IMG/VR virus record: IMGVR_UViG_3300042866_001722
Coordinates: 1 to 37,103 of that record
Direction: 5' to 3' (one strand)
DNA: 37,103 nucleotides
From: a virus
Of the stretch, positions 1 through 37,103 are shown in pieces; the first letter of the stretch is position 1; every line of letters begins with the position of its first letter. The position numbers were made by a program, and so were the translations under genes. The notes beneath the pieces were generated by a model. The model had not been told where the DNA came from. It ran no database searches and saw only the letters and a program-made list of their open reading frames with translations.

Positions 1-127
1 TCGACCAAAAAATAATTTATTTTTTTCCTTGAGCCGTCTGACGGCTGGTGGTAGAAACACCACCCAGATGCAAGGAGTGACCCGCAAAACCATCTCGTTT
101 CCCTCGCAGCTTGCGAAGGAGATTGCG
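1..127. repeat. Terminal direct repeat, left copy
   Basis: These bases are identical to 36977-37103. The repeat holds the last codons and TAA of the RHH gene that starts at 36773, an operator palindrome, and the start of the RHH gene at 68. Since it carries ordinary gene parts that read through from the right end, it is best seen as the overlap of a circular sequence and not as a biological terminal repeat. Confidence 0.93.
32..46. promoter_or_regulatory. Operator-like palindrome, copy 1
   Basis: AGCCGTC-T-GACGGCT is a perfect 7+1+7 palindrome, 22 bases before the ATG of the RHH gene at 68 and just after a T-rich tract. An almost identical palindrome lies at 203-217. RHH repressors typically bind short palindromes near their own promoter, so autoregulation is inferred. 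A second small dyad (GGTGGT/ACCACC) lies at 47-64. Confidence 0.6.
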
Positions 128-17311: not shown

Positions 17312-19099
17312 ATGGAGAAACAAAGCCCGCGCGAGCAGATCGCGCTTTGCGTCATTGTCGGCAACGAACCCAAACGGCTTGACCGTTGCTTGACTCAATT
17401 CGCCCTTGCCGTCAGCGAGATGGTGGTAGTCCACGCCACCGGGGCCGAAGCCAAGAGCATCAAGATTGCCGAAGTGTGCCAGAAGCACGGCGCCAAATAT
17501 GATGTCTATGCCAACGCGCCCGGCAACGAATGGCCGCACGTCGATGACTTCGGCGCCGCCCGCCAGCGGTCCTTCGACCTCGCCAGCAAGCCTTGGGCGC
17601 TGTGGGTGGACGCCGACGATACGCCAGGCCCAAACTTCGCATCCGCCTTGCACGAACTCTTAGAAAAGCACGGCGAGAACTTCGACGCCTTCGCCCTCTA
17701 TCACAACGTGGCCGGGCGCGGCATCGCCCACAACATCCGCGAGCGCCTCGTCCGCCGCGACAAGGGAAAGTGGGTCAATCGCATCCACGAGAATTTCCAA
17801 CTCGACGCCGACGCGCGCATTGCCAAGTGCGACGAGCCAACGGTGGTGCATCTGCCCGACGATGAGCCCAAGCAGGGCAGCAACCGCAATCTGACCATCC
17901 TCGAAAGCATTCCTGAAGCCGAGCGCACCGTCTCCGAGATTTACCATCTGCATGGCGAATACATGGGCCACGGGCGCAAGACCGAAGCGATGGCCCTTGC
18001 CAAGCAAGCCTTGGCCCATCCCGACCTTAAAGCCACCGAAAGATACGAATTGTGCCTCAATATCTGCGAGCTCGCTCGGCCCGAAATCCTGCAAACCGAC
18101 TCACCCGAATACAAAGCCATGATGACGGCTCTGCATTCGGCCTACAAAACGCAGCCCAACCGCCGCGAAGCCTTGGCCCTACTCGGCGCCATGCACCTCG
18201 ACCTCGGCGACATGGTGAGCGCCGAAGCCTATATCCGCAGCATGATGGCCCTTCCGCGCCCGGTGGATAAGCCGTGGACGCACCGCGACGGCCTTTATGG
18301 ATGGGCAGGGGAAGCCCTGTGGACGCAATGGCTCCGCATGGCCGGGCAGCAAGACAAAGCCGACGAGATCGAACGCGCCCGCATCAAAGGCCACAAATAC
18401 AGCATCAGCGTTTGCCACCCGACACGCGCCCGCGCCCATCAAGCGGCCATGACCCGCAAACGCTGGCTCGATGCCGCCGCCAACCCGGAGCGCATCGAAT
18501 ACATCTTTGGCTTTTCTGCCGATGACGAGGAATCGGTCGGCCTGCTCTCGCGCTTCCGCCACGCGCTTTCACCCGCCGGCAACCTTGAGCGCCCCGGCGG
18601 CACCGCCGTCCAGAACTACAACGCCGCCACCAACGCCGCCACCGGGCAAATCATCATCACCGCCCAGGATGATGTCTTCCCGCCGCTCCACTGGGATCTT
18701 GCCATTGAGGAAGCCCTGCGCGCCAAGGTGGACGCACGCCAACCCGCCGTCCTGCAAATCAAAGACGGATACCGCAACGACGATCTCATGGTTACGTTTT
18801 GCGTCACGCGCCCCACGTTCAAGCGTCTCGGCTACGGCGCGCAGAACATCTTGGCCCCTGACTATCCTGGCATCTTCAGCGACACCGAGTTTTCCCTGCG
18901 CGCGGGCAAAAGCGGGCTCCTCGTGCCGTCCGAAATCGTCTTCAAGCACGAGCATCCCTTTTGGAATCCCGCCGTGCCGTCCGACGATACCTACGCGATG
19001 GAGAACTCGGACGAAGCCTACCAGATCGGCGAGCAAATCTTCCGCCGCCGCAACCCGGATCTTGCGCCCAAGCCCGCTGACACCACCCCCACCGCATGA
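17312..19099 (+). CDS. Two-domain glycosyltransferase with helical-repeat linker (595 aa)
   Basis: The N-terminal domain is a GT-A/GT2-type transferase: ALCVIVGNEPKRLDRCL, then WALWVDADDTP (DxD-like, residues 97-105), close to SPBc2/TPR-linked glycosyltransferases. A middle region (about 180-345) is TPR-like (MALAKQALAHPDLKATERYE; ALLGAMHLDLGDMVSAEAYI). The C-terminal part starts YSISVCHPTRAR and carries IIITAQDDVFPPLHWD, a second GT-like centre. It has no signal peptide, so it would act in the cytoplasm, adding sugar to a capsid or tail protein, DNA, or a host glycan. Its place inside the head cassette favours a virion protein. Confidence 0.75.
   Translation: MEKQSPREQIALCVIVGNEPKRLDRCLTQFALAVSEMVVVHATGAEAKSIKIAEVCQKHGAKYDVYANAPGNEWPHVDDFGAARQRSFDLASKPWALWVDADDTPGPNFASALHELLEKHGENFDAFALYHNVAGRGIAHNIRERLVRRDKGKWVNRIHENFQLDADARIAKCDEPTVVHLPDDEPKQGSNRNLTILESIPEAERTVSEIYHLHGEYMGHGRKTEAMALAKQALAHPDLKATERYELCLNICELARPEILQTDSPEYKAMMTALHSAYKTQPNRREALALLGAMHLDLGDMVSAEAYIRSMMALPRPVDKPWTHRDGLYGWAGEALWTQWLRMAGQQDKADEIERARIKGHKYSISVCHPTRARAHQAAMTRKRWLDAAANPERIEYIFGFSADDEESVGLLSRFRHALSPAGNLERPGGTAVQNYNAATNAATGQIIITAQDDVFPPLHWDLAIEEALRAKVDARQPAVLQIKDGYRNDDLMVTFCVTRPTFKRLGYGAQNILAPDYPGIFSDTEFSLRAGKSGLLVPSEIVFKHEHPFWNPAVPSDDTYAMENSDEAYQIGEQIFRRRNPDLAPKPADTTPTA
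19077..19082 (+). promoter_or_regulatory. CTGACA variant start-proximal element
   Basis: CTGACACC at the 3' end of the glycosyltransferase gene, 19 bases before ATG 19096. One mismatch from TTGACACC. Confidence 0.4.
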
Positions 19100-25691: not shown

Positions 25692-26783
25692 GTGGAAGCC
25701 CGCAAGTTCTACCTCGACACCCAGCGGCGTGCGTTTGTCTCGTCGCCCGGCTCGACCCTTGACGCCTCAGCGCCTTTGTTTTTTGACGAGGACGTTGAGG
25801 CCGTGGAGTTGTTCTTCCTCCGCCCCACCGGCGACCTCAACACGCCCTACGAGTTCCTCGACTATTCATCTAACACCGTAAAATTCGCCGTCGGCACCAC
25901 CACGCCGGCCGCTTTGCAGGCTTCGTGGACAGCCCTGTCCACCACCGTGACCATTGCCGTCACTTCCTTGGTCACCGGCGGAAGCGGCACGGACGAGCAG
26001 CAGCGGGTCACATTGAGCCAACCGCCAATCACGGGCGGCTTCGCCCTCCAGTTGCCTAGCCGCAACGTCACCGTCTCCTCCGTCTCGGCCAACGTCTTCA
26101 CCGCCGCCGACCACGGACTTTATTCCGGCCAATCCGTCAGCCTCACCGCCTTCAGCTTCACCAATTCGGTTGTCGCCAACGGTTCCAGTTACTTCGTCAT
26201 CCGCAACAGCAAGGACACCTTCTCTCTGGCTTTTACCGCCTTCAGCACCACCGGCCTTACGGCATCCGTCACTTCCGGAGGCGGCACCGTCTCGCTTCCT
26301 GCCGTCACCACCGGCCAACTGCGGCACAGCGCCACGCCCCTCGAGGTTCAAGCGGCCCTGGTCGCCGCCGGACTGAGCATCAACGGCGCCCCGCAAATCC
26401 TCGTCACCGGCTCGGCGGGCAGGGAATACGTCCTGACCTTCGCCAACGGCTCGGCCAACCGCGACTACGACAACGTGTCCATCGTCGGCTCCACCCTGCT
26501 CGCCGCCGCCGGGCTGCAAGCCAACGTCAATTTTGCGACCAACGAAATCGCCGCCCTGGTTGCCGCCGGCTCCACCACCGCCAAGCTAGAAATCGAAGTC
26601 AGCGGCAGCGGCAAGCGCCAAACCTACCAGACCTCCTGCACCCTCTCGGCCGATATCGTCAGCAGCGCCAGCCTTACGCCAATCCCCGTCGGGTCTTCCG
26701 GCTACAACATGATCGCCGGCAATGGCGACGTTTACACCATCACCATCGACAACAACGGCGTCCTGACCGCGACCAAGCAATAA
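25692..26783 (+). CDS. Beta-rich tail-tip/fibre protein (363 aa)
   Basis: Start GTG 25692. Nearly all-beta and Ser/Thr/Val/Ala-rich, with internal repeat-like Ig-type segments (VTVSSVSANVFTAADHGLYS; SFTNSVVANGSSYFVIRNSK), a common build for tail-tip and fibre proteins. No signal peptide. A role in host contact is inferred from context. Confidence 0.55.
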   Translation: MEARKFYLDTQRRAFVSSPGSTLDASAPLFFDEDVEAVELFFLRPTGDLNTPYEFLDYSSNTVKFAVGTTTPAALQASWTALSTTVTIAVTSLVTGGSGTDEQQRVTLSQPPITGGFALQLPSRNVTVSSVSANVFTAADHGLYSGQSVSLTAFSFTNSVVANGSSYFVIRNSKDTFSLAFTAFSTTGLTASVTSGGGTVSLPAVTTGQLRHSATPLEVQAALVAAGLSINGAPQILVTGSAGREYVLTFANGSANRDYDNVSIVGSTLLAAAGLQANVNFATNEIAALVAAGSTTAKLEIEVSGSGKRQTYQTSCTLSADIVSSASLTPIPVGSSGYNMIAGNGDVYTITIDNNGVLTATKQ

Positions 26784-26785
26784 CC

Positions 26786-27310
26786 ATGAAACACCTTTTC
26801 CTCACCCTCCTCCTCGCCACCCTCTGCGCGGCCACTGGCTACGGGCAGACGCTTAAAAGCGTGATGATCGACACCAACGGGGTGCAGGTAAATCAGTTTG
26901 GAAGCGGATCAGCCAGCAACACGGCGATTAAGCTCGGCGGAACAAACTGGGGATTTTGGCGGGCAACAGGGCCAGACCGTATTTTGTTGTCTATTGGCGG
27001 GGCTACCGGGGCAACTTTCACATCAAACTCAATTACTACAACAACTTTCAGCGGCAATCTAAGCGGCGGCGTTACGATTGGCGCTGGTCAGAGTATTAGC
27101 TTTGGCGGCGGTGCAAATGTTTCGGGCACCCGCACCAACCTCGGCCTCGGCCTGCCCGCCCTGACCAACACCAGCAACGTCACGGCAATGCGGGCGCTGT
27201 CTGGTTCGACCGACACGAACCACCCGTTCAGCGGATCGGTGTCGGTAGTCGGAACCAACAACACCAACACGCTCGTTTTCTCAAACGGCATTTTGCAAGC
27301 GGTTCAATGA
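26786..27310 (+). CDS. Fibre-like protein with an N-terminal signal peptide (174 aa)
   Basis: The first 21 residues (KHLFLTLLLATLCAATGYGQ after Met) look like a Sec signal peptide with an ATGYGQ cleavage region. The rest is Gly/Ser/Thr/Asn-rich beta sequence with the RTNLGLG module and a TNTLVFSNGILQAVQ ending. These parts resemble phage fibre repeats. A virion protein is normally not exported, so either the protein is secreted/displayed or the leader is a borrowed host adhesin start. The C-terminal end is similar to that of 28074-29213. Confidence 0.6.
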   Translation: MKHLFLTLLLATLCAATGYGQTLKSVMIDTNGVQVNQFGSGSASNTAIKLGGTNWGFWRATGPDRILLSIGGATGATFTSNSITTTTFSGNLSGGVTIGAGQSISFGGGANVSGTRTNLGLGLPALTNTSNVTAMRALSGSTDTNHPFSGSVSVVGTNNTNTLVFSNGILQAVQ

Positions 27311-27489
27311 TCCACGAGCTTTCAGATTTCTTCACCCGCCCAACCGTGGCCGTGGCCTCCTCACTCGGTAGCGTCATCGTCTCGCTGCTTCCGCATTTAG
27401 AGACGGGGATGCGTCTCGGAACCCTTGGATGCGGCCTCGCCATCGCCGTGCTGGCGCTGGGTAAAGCCTGGAGGGACAGGAACAAATGA
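27307..27489 (+). CDS. Small holin-like membrane protein (60 aa)
   Basis: Two hydrophobic segments (PTVAVASSLGSVIVSLL and LGTLGCGLAIAVLALGKAW) separated by a short turn and a basic end (RDRNK) suit a class II holin or antiholin. It overlaps the signal-peptide fibre and the BppU-like gene by four bases each. A second holin candidate is at 31796. Its place inside the fibre genes, not the lysis cassette, is odd. Confidence 0.5.
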   Translation: MIHELSDFFTRPTVAVASSLGSVIVSLLPHLETGMRLGTLGCGLAIAVLALGKAWRDRNK

Positions 27490-27851
27490 GCGCGTGCAAT
27501 TCCTCACAGGCTGATCTTTGTTGGACACGCGGCGACAGCGGACGCCTCGATGTGTCAGTCAAAGACGCGGACGGCACGGCCTACAACTTAACAGGGGCCA
27601 CGCTTTTTCTGACGGTGAAGTCCGCGCTGACCGATGCCGATTCCGCCGCCGTGATTCGCAAGGAAGTCACCTCGCACAGCAACGCGGCGGGCGGGATTTC
27701 CCACTTTGATCTTTTGACCACGGACAACGCCACGGCGGGGACGCGCTACTACGATGTGCAGCTAAAGGACTCGACCAACAAAATCTACACGCTTTTCGGC
27801 GGCTTGTGGAAAGTCCTGTCTGACGTAACGACCCGAACCGCACCGCTCTAA
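27486..27851 (+). CDS. BppU-like baseplate domain protein (121 aa)
   Basis: The pattern WTRGDSGRLDVSVKDADGTA, then LTGATLFLTVKS, matches the N-terminal domain of phage baseplate upper proteins, a beta-sandwich that attaches receptor-binding proteins to the tail. Here it is a single domain. It neighbours short beta proteins and fibres, which supports a host-recognition organelle. Confidence 0.65.
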   Translation: MSACNSSQADLCWTRGDSGRLDVSVKDADGTAYNLTGATLFLTVKSALTDADSAAVIRKEVTSHSNAAGGISHFDLLTTDNATAGTRYYDVQLKDSTNKIYTLFGGLWKVLSDVTTRTAPL

Positions 27852-27855
27852 TGCC

Positions 27856-28077
27856 ATGGCTGACTACACTGTCGAAGTCATCATCCCGCGAGTCGGCCCA
27901 GCGACAGGCTCCGTCTCTTGGGAAAACGTGGCGCAAAAGCCTGTCCTTTCTGGCCCCGGCGCTCCTACCGAAACGGCCAGCAATGGCACGCTTTACATCC
28001 GCACGGATGGTACGCCTTCGACAACCCTCTATGTCCGCGCTGCCGGGGCATGGTCGCCTTTAGCTTCTTACCAATGA
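27856..28077 (+). CDS. Small beta-rich fibre-region protein (73 aa)
   Basis: It has a Val/Ile-rich start (TVEVIIPRVGPATGSVSWEN) like the collagen-type fibre at 29210 (VEVTIPLVGPAGPTG), followed by a short beta domain (TLYIRTDGTPSTTLYVRAAG). This looks like a trimmed fibre base domain. It overlaps the next gene by four bases. Confidence 0.55.
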   Translation: MADYTVEVIIPRVGPATGSVSWENVAQKPVLSGPGAPTETASNGTLYIRTDGTPSTTLYVRAAGAWSPLASYQ

Positions 28078-29213
28078 AACGCTTTGCCGCAGTCTTAATC
28101 GCCGCCGCCGCCTCAGCCCACGCGCAGTTTGCCGTCATGCACACGAATGGTGTGGTGACCAGCCCAACCAACCTAACCATTCAGCAAAGCAACGTGGCAG
28201 GTCTCTCGCAGGCGCTTAATAGTAAGCTCGCCACCAACGGATCGGCGGGCGGACTGACAAACTTTCCTGCCAATTTGTTAAGCCATAGCAACGGAGTCGT
28301 TATCTACACGAACACCAATGTTTTATCTTTTGCAAAAACAATAGAGATCAAAGGGCCAGACACCACCAACATTCCCACCTTGTCTTGGCAAACTTCTGAC
28401 GGAGTGGGGGATGGAAGCATGTTGGCGTTTTCAAGGCGTCACGCGACCAATCTGTGGTTTGGCATCAACCAGACAAATTGGTCTCAAGGGGCGTGGGGTC
28501 AAAACATTCAACCCACTGCGGATGGCAACAACTTTACCAGAAAAAACACCAATTTCGGCTCTGTAAGTCTTGTTTTGGAAAACGAATACAACTTTGAGCA
28601 AAACACCAATAATCCGCCGCGCACCGTTGCCGAAATGTATTTTCGCGTGGACAGCGCCGATGGCGCTCAATTCCGCCCGCTGATGTTTGTCGGAAGCCAA
28701 ACAAACCCAGTTCTTGGCTACGGAGGATCTTATTATCCATTTACCGTTCAAACTACAAATGTGGGATTTAACGCCACACATGCTTTCACCGTGGATTTTG
28801 CCAATCCCGCCGCAGGATCGACTATGCAAATACGCAACATGGCAACTAACAGCGGAACATATGCCCAGCTGGAGTTTATCAACTCAGCCAGCACAATGGC
28901 CTTTTTTGCCAAACAAAATAAATTTGAGATGTATGCAAACCATTCGCCTTCTTTTCATGTGCTTCAATCGGTCACAAACGGCGTGATCATTGGCGGATCT
29001 TTCGCTTCATCTGCCGCCGCTCGGGTTCAACTCGGCGGAGACACCCGCATTGATGGAGCAATTAGTTTCGGCAATACGACCAACGCGGCCACGACCCGCG
29101 CCAACCTCGGCCTCGGCAGTGGGATTACCACTAACGTCACGCTTGTAGATGCTTCGACAAACACCAATGCCATAACCATCAGCAACGGCATTATAACTGG
29201 CTGGACGCAATGA
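28074..29213 (+). CDS. Second fibre-like protein with a signal peptide (379 aa)
   Basis: ATG 28074 opens with KRFAAVLIAAAASAHAQF, a textbook Sec leader with an AHA-Q cleavage site. The mature part is Asn/Thr-rich beta sequence with fibre modules (LSQALNSKLATNGSAGGLTN), and it ends with RANLGLG and AITISNGIITGWTQ, like the first signal-peptide fibre. Middle parts are A/T-richer than their flanks. It would leave the cytoplasm if the leader works. Confidence 0.6.
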   Translation: MKRFAAVLIAAAASAHAQFAVMHTNGVVTSPTNLTIQQSNVAGLSQALNSKLATNGSAGGLTNFPANLLSHSNGVVIYTNTNVLSFAKTIEIKGPDTTNIPTLSWQTSDGVGDGSMLAFSRRHATNLWFGINQTNWSQGAWGQNIQPTADGNNFTRKNTNFGSVSLVLENEYNFEQNTNNPPRTVAEMYFRVDSADGAQFRPLMFVGSQTNPVLGYGGSYYPFTVQTTNVGFNATHAFTVDFANPAAGSTMQIRNMATNSGTYAQLEFINSASTMAFFAKQNKFEMYANHSPSFHVLQSVTNGVIIGGSFASSAAARVQLGGDTRIDGAISFGNTTNAATTRANLGLGSGITTNVTLVDASTNTNAITISNGIITGWTQ

Positions 29214-30010
29214 CCTCCTCCCAATACTACAAAGTCACCGCCTACGTCGGCACGCCACACCGCAATGCGGTCGAGGTGACGATCCCGCTGGTTGGCCCCG
29301 CTGGCCCGACTGGCAGCGTTGGCCCCGTTGGCCCTCAAGGCCCGCAGGGAGTGCCTGGCACCGGGCTGGAAGTCCTGACCACGCAGGGCGATCTTCTCTA
29401 CCAAGGCGCGTCTACCGGGCAGCGCCTCCCCATCGGAACAAGCGGCCAGATCCTGAAAGTCGCCGCCAGCGGCATCCCCGAATGGGGCGCAGCCCCGGCG
29501 TCGGGCGTGTCCTCGGTCAACGGAGCCACGGGGGCAGTGACCATAGGCGCATTTTCATACGGAAGCGGGGGCGGCGGTCTTGTCCCGCAAGCCACGGGCG
29601 GCGATGTGGGCAGATTCTTAAAAGGAGACGCAAGCTGGAGCCTGCCAACAACCAGCGATGTGCAGGGGCTTTCAGACGCGCTCGCCGCAAAGCAAAACAC
29701 AGGCGACTATGTAACCCCGACTCGCGTCGAAACAGACTACTTTGATCGCGGCGGCGACAATGCCGCCACTCGGCCCGGCACTGGCGGTCAAAAACGCTAT
29801 CAAGTAGTTCTTTCCAACGACACGAGGCTCATAGATCAGCGTAGTATCGCGTGGATCACTCCCGCGCCGTCATCGCCAACTGACAACACGACAAATCCCG
29901 CCCTCGGATCGGTGTCCTACGACGGCAATTATCTTTATGTGCTTGTGCAAGCCCCCGGCAGCCAAAGCCGCCGCTGGGGGCGTGTGCCCATGCCTCTCAA
30001 CTGGACTTAA
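29210..30010 (+). CDS. Collagen-like tail fibre protein (266 aa)
   Basis: After a short beta base (VTAYVGTPHRNAVEVTIPL) comes a run of G-x-y repeats (GPAGPTGSVGPVGPQGPQGV), a short trimerising collagen rod, then Gly/Ser-rich beta modules (GDLLYQGASTGQRLPIGTSG) and a distal domain. Fibres of this build bind receptors as trimers. It overlaps the preceding gene by four bases. Confidence 0.72.
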   Translation: MTSSQYYKVTAYVGTPHRNAVEVTIPLVGPAGPTGSVGPVGPQGPQGVPGTGLEVLTTQGDLLYQGASTGQRLPIGTSGQILKVAASGIPEWGAAPASGVSSVNGATGAVTIGAFSYGSGGGGLVPQATGGDVGRFLKGDASWSLPTTSDVQGLSDALAAKQNTGDYVTPTRVETDYFDRGGDNAATRPGTGGQKRYQVVLSNDTRLIDQRSIAWITPAPSSPTDNTTNPALGSVSYDGNYLYVLVQAPGSQSRRWGRVPMPLNWT

Positions 30011-30013
30011 TCT

Positions 30014-31447
30014 ATGGCACTCAACGACATCAAAGTTCCCAAAGAAAACGCGCAGGGCACGTTTGACGAAATTGCCTTGGCCGCGTCCGACCTCAAACTC
30101 GGCACCACCGCCAACCTCCCGCTCAAAACAGGCACAGGCGGCGTCATCGAGGCGGGTTCATTTTCCAACACGGCAGGGAGCTTTTGCGAGGGTAACGATG
30201 CGCGGTTGAGTGACGCGAGGACGCCCACGGCGCACGCTGCAAGTCACGCTTATAACGCCTCTGATCCATTAGAAGCGGCCGGTCTTGCAGCTACGGGCGC
30301 GGATGATGGGTCAATTTTACAGGCGGATGGCACAGGATTGTCTATTTGGGTAGATGGCCCGACTTGGGCTTCGCAAAACGTAGCTACCTCTGACATCGGC
30401 GCCGCCGCCTCTGGCTCCATCACCACATCGGGCCTCACCCAAGCGACCGCAAGAATTTTGGGAAGGACGAGTGCCAGCACGGGCGCCGTCGAGGAGATCA
30501 CAGTCGGATCGGGCTTGAGTCTGTCAGCGGGGGAGCTGTCTTCCACCGTCAGCGCGGGCATCCCTGCAACCCTCCTCGACGCCAAAGGCGACCTCATCGT
30601 GGCCTCGGCAGCGGACACCGTGGCGCGGCTCCCTGTGGGCGGCACGAATGGCCATGTGCTAACGGTTGATTCGGCGGAAACGCTTGGGGTGAAATGGGCA
30701 GCGGCGGCATCGGGCGGCATCTCCGCAGTCGGCGCATCCACCGCCGATGTCTTGAGCGTGTCGGGGTCTGATCTGGTTGCCGATGACCCGAACGCGGATC
30801 GCCTAATTTTCTACGATGACAGCGCCAGTAAACTCACCCACGCCACCGCAGGAAAAGGACTGTCATTCAATGGGACTACGCTAAATAGCGCCCCAGCGTT
30901 CCCCGTCGATCCCATATCGCGTGGCGCAACTTTCATATCTTTTATCGGCCACGCAGTGAGCGGCAACAGTGGTAACATGGTAAACACCTCTGGTGGGTTT
31001 GTTCTGTTTGCACCCGTGTATGTTAGAAAATCTGCCAACTATACAACGTTTTCTTGTGGGGTGGCGGTGGCGGGTTCTGCTGCTTCGCTTGGCAAAATGG
31101 CTCTATACACGATTAACGCGGCAGACGCGCTGCCGAACGCTCTCGTCTGTGAAAGCGGCACCTTTGCGGCGGACTCAACGGGCATAAAACAGCCGACGAT
31201 GGCTTCTACGTTCGTTTCTGAGGGGTGGTATTACATGGCTATTGGAACAAACAGCACGACCAACATGAACCTTTATGGCGACACCATGGCGTTGCTGCGG
31301 GGCGTATTTGGAGGATCGCCCCTTAACGCGCAGTCCTTTCTGCTGGATTTCTCACAAAAGCTCTACGCCGATTTGTGGCCTAATCCGTGGAACGGAACTG
31401 GATCTACATTCCGCAACGCTTTTCACCCCATAACCTCTTTAACCTAA
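30014..31447 (+). CDS. Main tail fibre protein (477 aa)
   Basis: Ala/Gly/Ser/Thr-rich, with recurring fibre signatures: NDARLSDARTPTAHAASHAY, GDLIVASAADTVARLPVG and GHVLTVDSAETLGVKWA. The C-terminal 150 residues (RGATFISFIGHAVSGNSGNM to the end) form a separate globular, probably receptor-binding, domain. The similar DLLYQGASTGQRLP and DLIVASAADTVARLP modules show relation to the preceding fibre. Confidence 0.75.
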   Translation: MALNDIKVPKENAQGTFDEIALAASDLKLGTTANLPLKTGTGGVIEAGSFSNTAGSFCEGNDARLSDARTPTAHAASHAYNASDPLEAAGLAATGADDGSILQADGTGLSIWVDGPTWASQNVATSDIGAAASGSITTSGLTQATARILGRTSASTGAVEEITVGSGLSLSAGELSSTVSAGIPATLLDAKGDLIVASAADTVARLPVGGTNGHVLTVDSAETLGVKWAAAASGGISAVGASTADVLSVSGSDLVADDPNADRLIFYDDSASKLTHATAGKGLSFNGTTLNSAPAFPVDPISRGATFISFIGHAVSGNSGNMVNTSGGFVLFAPVYVRKSANYTTFSCGVAVAGSAASLGKMALYTINAADALPNALVCESGTFAADSTGIKQPTMASTFVSEGWYYMAIGTNSTTNMNLYGDTMALLRGVFGGSPLNAQSFLLDFSQKLYADLWPNPWNGTGSTFRNAFHPITSLT

Positions 31448-31963: not shown

Positions 31964-32100
31964 TGCGTCTCGCATTGCTCGCTGTGGCGCTTCTGCTTTG
32001 CGGCTGCGCGGGGATGAAGCTCGGCGGCGGCTACCGCTTCGATACGAAAGAGTTTTTTCTGCAAATCGAGAAGCCGCTTGAGCCTTCGCTGAAGAAGTGA
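31963..32100 (+). CDS. Small lipoprotein, outer-spanin-like (45 aa)
   Basis: The leader RLALLAVALLLCGCAG contains a lipobox (LCGC, lipidated Cys 14). The mature part is 31 residues (AGMKLGGGYRFDTKEFFLQI...). Its location between holin and amidase is that of an Rz1-type outer-membrane spanin, but no inner-membrane spanin partner is visible. Overlap TAATG with the holin and GTGA with the endolysin. Confidence 0.6.
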   Translation: MRLALLAVALLLCGCAGMKLGGGYRFDTKEFFLQIEKPLEPSLKK

Positions 32101-36852: not shown

Positions 36853-36991
36853 CGAGATCCAGGCTATTGCGGACGAGAAATACAAGGGCGACTTCACACG
36901 CGCCGTGCTCGAAGAGATGGCGCGGCGGTTCCCCACGGCGCGAGAGTTTTTGCGGACGAACACCACGTCCAAATTCTCGACCAAAAAATAA
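36773..36991 (+). CDS. Ribbon-helix-helix DNA-binding protein (72 aa)
   Basis: NRIRKTIPFPDALADEIQAI then YKGDFTRAVLEEMARRF gives the strand-helix-helix of RHH regulators. It is a paralogue of the protein starting at 68 (37044), which follows it directly on the circular map. A basic leader (KKQQKPRDRAANR) precedes the domain. The promoter and overlapping palindrome upstream suggest autoregulation. Confidence 0.75.
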   Translation: MKKQQKPRDRAANRIRKTIPFPDALADEIQAIADEKYKGDFTRAVLEEMARRFPTAREFLRTNTTSKFSTKK

Positions 36992-37103
36992 TTTATTTTT
37001 TTCCTTGAGCCGTCTGACGGCTGGTGGTAGAAACACCACCCAGATGCAAGGAGTGACCCGCAAAACCATCTCGTTTCCCTCGCAGCTTGCGAAGGAGATT
37101 GCG
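36977..37103. repeat. Terminal direct repeat, right copy
   Basis: Exact 127-base copy of the window start. The RHH gene at 36773 ends in it (TAA at 36989-36991) and a second copy of the gene at 68 begins in it (ATG at 37044) and runs off the end. 127 is a common maximum assembly k-mer, which fits an assembly overlap of a circular or circularly permuted genome. Confidence 0.93.
37044..37103 (+). CDS. Partial second copy of the RHH gene at 68
   Basis: Same sequence as 68-127, cut by the window end. It is an artefact of the 127-base overlap. Confidence 0.85.
   Translation, partial: MQGVTRKTISFPSQLAKEIA

What the first reader, a model, noticed from the sequence alone, without database searches (positions are those of the whole stretch)
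26786..29213. Two fibre-like proteins with Sec signal peptides
The products at 26786 and 28074 begin with clear leaders (cleavage near ATGYGQ and SAHAQ), followed by fibre-type repeats, and share C-terminal modules (RTNLGLG/RANLGLG and F/I-SNGI). Tail fibres assemble in the cytoplasm, so export signals are unexpected. They may be secreted or surface-exposed phage products that change adhesion or block superinfection, or fibre parts joined to host adhesin starts.
Basis: partly seen in the sequence, partly recalled or inferred. Interest (0 to 1): 0.7.

Follow-up and report, generated by a model that had tools for sequence, protein, structure and literature searches.

The report
Phage tail-fibre proteins with export signals
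Two tail-fibre-like proteins of an uncultured phage really do start with bacterial export signals, and so does every complete relative found in dozens of other environmental phages, so these viruses probably send fibre proteins out of the host cytoplasm, although tail fibres are normally built inside it.

Summary
ORFs 26786-27310 (A) and 28074-29213 (B) start with Sec-type leaders (MKHLFLTLLLATLCAATGYG|Q, MKRFAAVLIAAAASAHA|Q). They belong to a mosaic fibre family found in many IMG/VR contigs. Among 54 complete relatives picked out only by C-terminal motifs, 54 carry a leader and 54 have Gln after the predicted cut; the crude caller fires on 63/543 control ORFs (14/543 with Gln). Leader ATGs sit against the upstream stop codon. 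B is 91% identical over 312 aa to a protein with an unrelated leader, so leaders are swapped but not lost. Mature parts are almost Cys-free (5/22,548 residues; leaderless fibres 82/22,375). All this favours genuine export and SPase I cleavage; no experiment or SignalP run supports it yet. Leadered genes usually follow a leaderless protein with a C-terminal cap. In 5/31 relatives the cap of f8 and gene A are missing together, in at least two independent events. My favoured mechanism is an exported distal fibre that joins its virion base around lysis; off-virion receptor masking is nearly as likely. A host-adhesin origin is not supported. Host: probably Verrucomicrobiota (capsid protein alone). 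No such fibres in 50,697 phage records or two genome scans.

The parts
26786..26845 (+). Sec leader of fibre A: MKHLFLTLLLATLCAATGYG, predicted SPase I cut before Gln
   Evidence: 54/54 complete relatives have a leader and Gln after the predicted cut
26846..27310 (+). Fibre A mature part: short conserved N-terminus (QTLKSVMIDTNG), variable middle, C-terminal module
   Evidence: AF2 mean pLDDT 60, last ~25 residues about 90
27128..27307 (+). C-terminal module of A (RTNLGLG...ALTNT...TNHPFSG...TLVFSNGILQAVQ), shared with fibres that carry other leaders
28074..28124 (+). Sec leader of fibre B: MKRFAAVLIAAAASAHA, predicted cut before Gln
28074..28265 (+). Leader plus N-terminus of B, 81% identical to L011 (donor 1 of the mosaic)
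   Evidence: L011, residues 1-64
28281..29213 (+). Body of B, 91-92% identical to L002/L003 proteins that carry an unrelated leader (MKKLALTLIFGILGVGVYG); ends ISNGIITGWTQ
25692..26783 (+). f8: leaderless tail-tip/proximal fibre-type protein directly upstream of A
   Evidence: phrog_10909 major tail protein, E 5.7e-5
26661..26780 (+). C-terminal cap of f8 (SSASLTP...VYTITIDNNGVLTATKQ); missing in the 5 relatives that lack A at this place
27307..27489 (+). f9: 60-aa protein with two hydrophobic stretches (holin-like by inspection), overlaps the end of A
27486..27851 (+). f0/f16: BppU_N-like protein; relatives match 'L-shaped tail fiber protein assembly'
27856..28077 (+). Tiny leaderless base protein (N-terminus like the fibre at 29210, cap LYIRTDG..TTLYVRA..WSPL) directly upstream of B
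   Evidence: inspection
29210..30010 (+). Leaderless collagen-like tail fibre
30014..31447 (+). f2: leaderless tail/fibre protein

Best explanation
A and B belong to a family of phage fibre proteins made as Sec preproteins. Inferred step 1 (strongly supported by sequence, not shown at the bench): they are exported and cut by signal peptidase I before Gln. Inferred step 2 (moderate): each is the distal half of a two-part fibre whose base is a leaderless protein encoded directly upstream (f8 for A, the 72-aa protein for B). The base ends in a small cap that docks the conserved mature N-terminus of the exported part, in the proximal-to-distal gene order known from other phage fibres such as T4 (from memory). 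Inferred step 3 (speculative): base and exported part meet only when the cell opens at lysis, so the variable adhesive part is kept apart from cytoplasmic assembly. My confidence in export alone is about 0.85; the figure below is for the whole chain.
For: Leader in 54/54 complete members found by C-terminal motif, with Gln after the predicted cut in all; -1 is G/A in 53/54. Controls 63/543 and 14/543; leaderless tail families 1/122 at their starts. Start ATGs abut upstream stops. Unrelated leaders on near-identical bodies (B versus L002, 91% over 312 aa, leaders 26%). Mature parts almost Cys-free, 5/22,548 against 82/22,375 residues in leaderless f2 fibres of the same loci. Starting from f8, which was not chosen for leaders, 26/31 loci have a leadered ORF starting -12 to +34 nt from the f8 match end, bodies largely different. 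In the other 5, f8 stops before its cap and A is absent; the f8 tree forces at least two events. Most other leadered fibres follow a capped base protein (f4, f5 or 72-aa). Fibre nature: SU10 tail fibre 7z47 E 8e-7, PHROG tail fibres down to E 3e-6, neighbours tape measure, BppU_N-like, tail-fibre assembly.
Against: No virion proteome, localisation or SignalP run. I know of no tailed phage that exports a virion fibre. f8 cap and A are adjacent, so one deletion can remove both; only two events are seen. A is dispensable (four contigs of 33-37 kb lack A/C-type matches). AF2 models are too poor to show docking. Low Cys may partly reflect shared ancestry and simple composition.
Confidence: 0.35

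Rival explanations
1. Exported off-virion receptor-masking protein: A and B accumulate in the envelope, bind the receptor that the virion fibres use, and prevent superinfection and loss of progeny on debris, working like T5 Llp.
For: Export signals as above. The family is accessory and its bodies vary, as expected for matched receptor binding. Llp is a periplasmic lipoprotein that blocks FhuA (PMC9586334).
Against: Fibres of up to ~925 aa are far larger than Llp-type proteins. No lipobox at the predicted cut. Does not explain why the f8 cap is absent with A or the pairing with capped base proteins. Surface receptors would also need passage through the outer membrane.
Confidence: 0.3
2. The hydrophobic N-terminus is not an export signal but an uncleaved anchor by which the fibre sits in the virion or in the membrane.
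For: A conserved hydrophobic N-terminus is compatible with an anchor; AF2 makes it a helix.
Against: Gln after a small residue in 54/54 has no obvious reason to exist without cleavage. Leaders of unrelated sequence replace one another. Cys depletion of the mature part.
Confidence: 0.1
3. Secreted adhesin or lysogenic-conversion factor that changes host adhesion.
For: Export plus fibre-like variable parts.
Against: Encoded in the middle of the tail operon with stop/start overlaps, not as a separately expressed moron. No prophage relatives in two scans of 84,980 genomes, so no sign of expression from lysogens.
Confidence: 0.1
4. Ordinary cytoplasmic tail fibres whose leaders are chance hydrophobic starts or assembly chimaeras.
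For: Tail fibres are normally assembled in the cytoplasm; the fibre module itself is ordinary.
Against: Universal retention over dozens of separately assembled contigs, Gln rule, start positions and control rates.
Confidence: 0.05

Closest known systems
Tail fibre of Escherichia phage SU10 (PDB 7z47) and PHROG tail-fibre families 5481, 1591, 10316, 11393
   Same: R-T-N-L-G-L-G type repeats, location among tail genes.
   Different: A and B themselves have no hit; the family here carries Sec leaders and almost no Cys.
Q-rule genes of Porphyromonas gingivalis phages (PMC10367356)
   Same: Phage proteins with Sec/SPase I leaders that expose Gln after cleavage.
   Different: Those five genes are of unknown function and are not described as fibres. 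Here the leadered proteins are fibre-like, tail-operon encoded and spread over unrelated phage types. The Q-rule is described for Bacteroidetes (PMC5837995); this host is probably Verrucomicrobiota.
T5 Llp (PMC9586334); phi80/N15 Cor (from memory)
   Same: Lytic-phage protein sent to the periplasm.
   Different: Llp is a small lipoprotein, not fibre-like; no lipobox here.
PblA/PblB of Streptococcus phages (PMC4508584 listed, not read; details from memory)
   Same: Phage tail-type proteins acting at the cell surface.
   Different: From memory, they lack Sec leaders.
Verrucomicrobia phage P8625
   Same: Best capsid match (29.6%) and similar order terminase-portal-protease-capsid-tape measure-fibre.
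   Different: SignalP found no signal peptide in any P8625 protein (PMC4642752); its fibre gp22 is leaderless.

Membership tests
Sec/SPase I substrates | Positive n-region, hydrophobic core, small residues at -3 and -1 | tested here: met
   50/54 with net charge +1 or +2 in the first 8 residues, -1 is G/A in 53/54, -3 mostly S/V/A/G
Sec/SPase I substrates | Leader is at the true translation start | tested here: met
   leader ATG -14 to +16 nt from the upstream stop in 66/67; by sequence only
Sec/SPase I substrates | Actual export and cleavage | not testable with these tools
   needs a bench assay; Cys depletion is indirect
Q-rule proteins (Gln at +1) | Gln directly after the cut | tested here: met
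   54/54; pyroglutamate not testable
Phage tail fibres | Profile match to known tail fibres | tested here: inconclusive
   A and B none; B none in PDB; long relatives E 8e-7 and 3e-6
Phage tail fibres | Encoded among tail/fibre genes | tested here: met
Phage tail fibres | Part of the virion | not testable with these tools
   no proteome
Llp/Cor-type receptor blockers | Lipobox with Cys at +1 | tested here: not met
   residue after the predicted cut is Gln in 54/54
Host adhesins | Related genes in bacterial genomes | tested here: not met
   none confirmed in 84,980 genomes at the sensitivity of these pattern scans

The most novel reading that the evidence does not exclude
Tailed phages in at least two unrelated virion groups export the adhesive half of their tail fibres through the host Sec pathway and attach it to the virion outside the cytoplasm, around lysis: a two-compartment route of tail-fibre assembly.
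Probability: 0.3. Interest if true: 0.85.

Novelty: new variant of a known kind. Interest (0 to 1): 0.62.

Why it matters
If the leaders work as they look, tail-fibre proteins are not always confined to the cytoplasm: a widespread uncultured phage group either builds its adhesion apparatus in two compartments or floods the envelope with copies of fibre-like proteins. Either would change how receptor-binding proteins, superinfection exclusion and progeny release are annotated in these phages, and it makes the question 'which phage fibres leave the cell before the virion does' testable with simple leader fusions.

Tried and rejected
Start after the leader: rejected by stop/start overlap. Chimaera or chance: rejected. 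Host adhesin start: no relative in two genome scans, though these scans use short degenerate patterns (1-2 each) and can miss distant relatives. Fold comparison: AF2 gave pLDDT 41 (B) and 60 (A), so no fold search was run. Pfam/PHROG on A and B: nothing. Cultured phages: no tblastn match for B-, C- or A-type fibres in 50,697 records. Host by portal and terminase of the second phage group: no match. Correlation between f8 cap type and mature N-terminus type of A: seen, but it follows the f8 tree, so not counted as co-evolution. Literature search found no exported tail fibres, within an open-access library only.

Full report
What is there. The window is a tailed-phage genome from IMG/VR. Its first 100 bases recur at 36977, consistent with a direct terminal repeat of about 127 bp. 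Terminase, portal, protease, capsid, tape measure and amidase genes are recognisable. The capsid protein is closest to Verrucomicrobia phage P8625 (29.6%), whose gene order is similar; the host assignment rests on that alone. The order around the finding is: tape measure, 24740, 25403, f8 (25692), A (26786), a 60-aa protein with two hydrophobic stretches (27307), a BppU_N-like protein (27486), a 72-aa protein (27856), B (28074), a collagen-like fibre (29210), f2 (30014), then the amidase at 32097.

Are the leaders real? A begins MKHLFLTLLLATLCAATGYG|QT and B begins MKRFAAVLIAAAASAHA|QF. Searches of IMG/VR with A and B, then with alignments of them, brought relatives from several dozen contigs. 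To avoid circularity I picked proteins only by C-terminal motifs: of 59 distinct ones, 54 were not cut by a contig end, and 54 of 54 carry a leader with Gln after the predicted cut. Some of the loci had been fetched with patterns that touch the leader; the scan used no leader pattern and gives the same answer. The residue before the cut is G or A in 53 of 54. The same crude caller fires on 63 of 543 other ORFs when any in-frame start on either strand is allowed (14 with Gln), and on 1 of 122 starts of leaderless tail families. The leader ATG lies -14 to +16 nt from the upstream stop codon in 66 of 67 cases, the last being at a contig edge. The caller is a rule set of mine, not SignalP, and the proteins are related, so P values are only indicative.

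Leaders are exchanged but not lost. B is a mosaic: residues 1-64 resemble L011 (81%), residues from about 70 on are 91% identical to L002. L002 carries a leader only 26% identical to that of B, and both are Sec-like. Other pairs show the same: C-terminal stretches up to 97% identical behind leaders 11-30% identical. This is what selection for an export signal as such would leave.

Mature parts avoid cysteine: 5 in 22,548 residues, against 82 in 22,375 for the leaderless f2 fibres of the same loci; 60 of 65 leadered proteins have none, against 1 of 32 f2 proteins. That fits life in an oxidising compartment, although shared ancestry and simple composition may contribute (another leaderless family, f11, is Cys-free).

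Gln at +1 is the Bacteroidetes 'Q-rule' (PMC5837995), and five P. gingivalis phage genes of unknown function follow it (PMC10367356). Whether Verrucomicrobiota follow it I could not test.

Fibre nature. A and B have no Pfam or PHROG match, but a profile of their long relatives matches the SU10 tail fibre (7z47, E 8e-7; phage name from memory, the record says 'Putative tail fiber'), and single relatives match PHROG tail fibres down to E 3e-6. Two phage groups carry the module: one with f8 behind the tape measure, another with the module between terminase and a large protein that I take for the portal by position. In both the leadered proteins stand among leaderless fibre proteins.

Link to the virion. 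Starting from f8, which was not selected for leaders, 26 of 31 loci have a leadered ORF starting -12 to +34 nt from the end of the f8 match; in one of them (L221) it is cut by the contig end. The proteins differ widely beyond the N-terminus (median 40% identity against 31% for shuffled sequence). In the remaining five (L220, L239, L241, L242, L244) f8 ends at ...SADII or ...PDIIP, without its 40-residue cap, and A is missing. The f8 tree forces at least two such events. Four of these contigs (33-37 kb) have no A- or C-type match anywhere; the fifth has a B-type protein further on. So A is accessory, and cap and A come or go together. Because they are adjacent, a single deletion could explain each event; that both events share nearly the same boundaries suggests that the cap is only kept with A. 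Most other leadered fibres also follow a capped small or fibre-type protein (f4, f5, the 72-aa protein).

Mechanism. Export with cleavage is the part I hold at about 0.85. What the exported fibre then does is open. The proximal-to-distal gene order and the cap link favour a two-part fibre whose distal part is exported and joins its base around lysis (0.35 for the whole chain). Off-virion receptor masking, working like T5 Llp (PMC9586334), is nearly as likely (0.30). An uncleaved anchor, a secreted adhesin and chance are less likely.

Novelty. No A-, B- or C-type fibre was found in the 50,697 records of the phage collection, and none in two pattern scans of 84,980 genomes. The closest cultured relative, P8625, has no signal peptides at all (PMC4642752). 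The fibre family is a known kind of thing; universal Sec leaders on it are, as far as this library shows, undescribed.

Noticed in passing
window 1-127 and 36977-37103: The first 100 bases recur at 36977, consistent with a direct terminal repeat of about 127 bp, so the contig is probably a complete, terminally redundant genome.
   Followed up: partly
window 17312-19099: A 595-aa protein right after the capsid gene matches PHROG glycosyltransferases (E 1.7e-16).
   Followed up: no
L036 14667, L053 14564, L220 10341, L236 about 9440: Small lipoproteins (..GCASMPQM / GCATMPDM..) in the lysis region, o-spanin-like by inspection, which would imply a host with an outer membrane.
   Followed up: no
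L005, L010, L014, L016, L017, L025, L029, L030, L034: A second phage group carries its fibre module, with two leadered fibres, between the terminase and a 758-aa protein (portal by position); terminase and that protein match no phage record by tblastn.
   Followed up: partly
L014 7557-9797, L016 7482-9755, L030 6688-9558, L031 6250-9525: The 71-aa protein f5 upstream of B-type fibres is replaced in some phages by 746-1091-aa proteins that keep its N-terminus, tailspike-like by inspection.
   Followed up: no
L047 10780-10983, L053 10765, L220 6974-7174, L228 8426-8629: The gene f9 behind A (two hydrophobic stretches) is replaced in some phages by an unrelated 66-67-aa protein with one hydrophobic stretch.
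   Followed up: no
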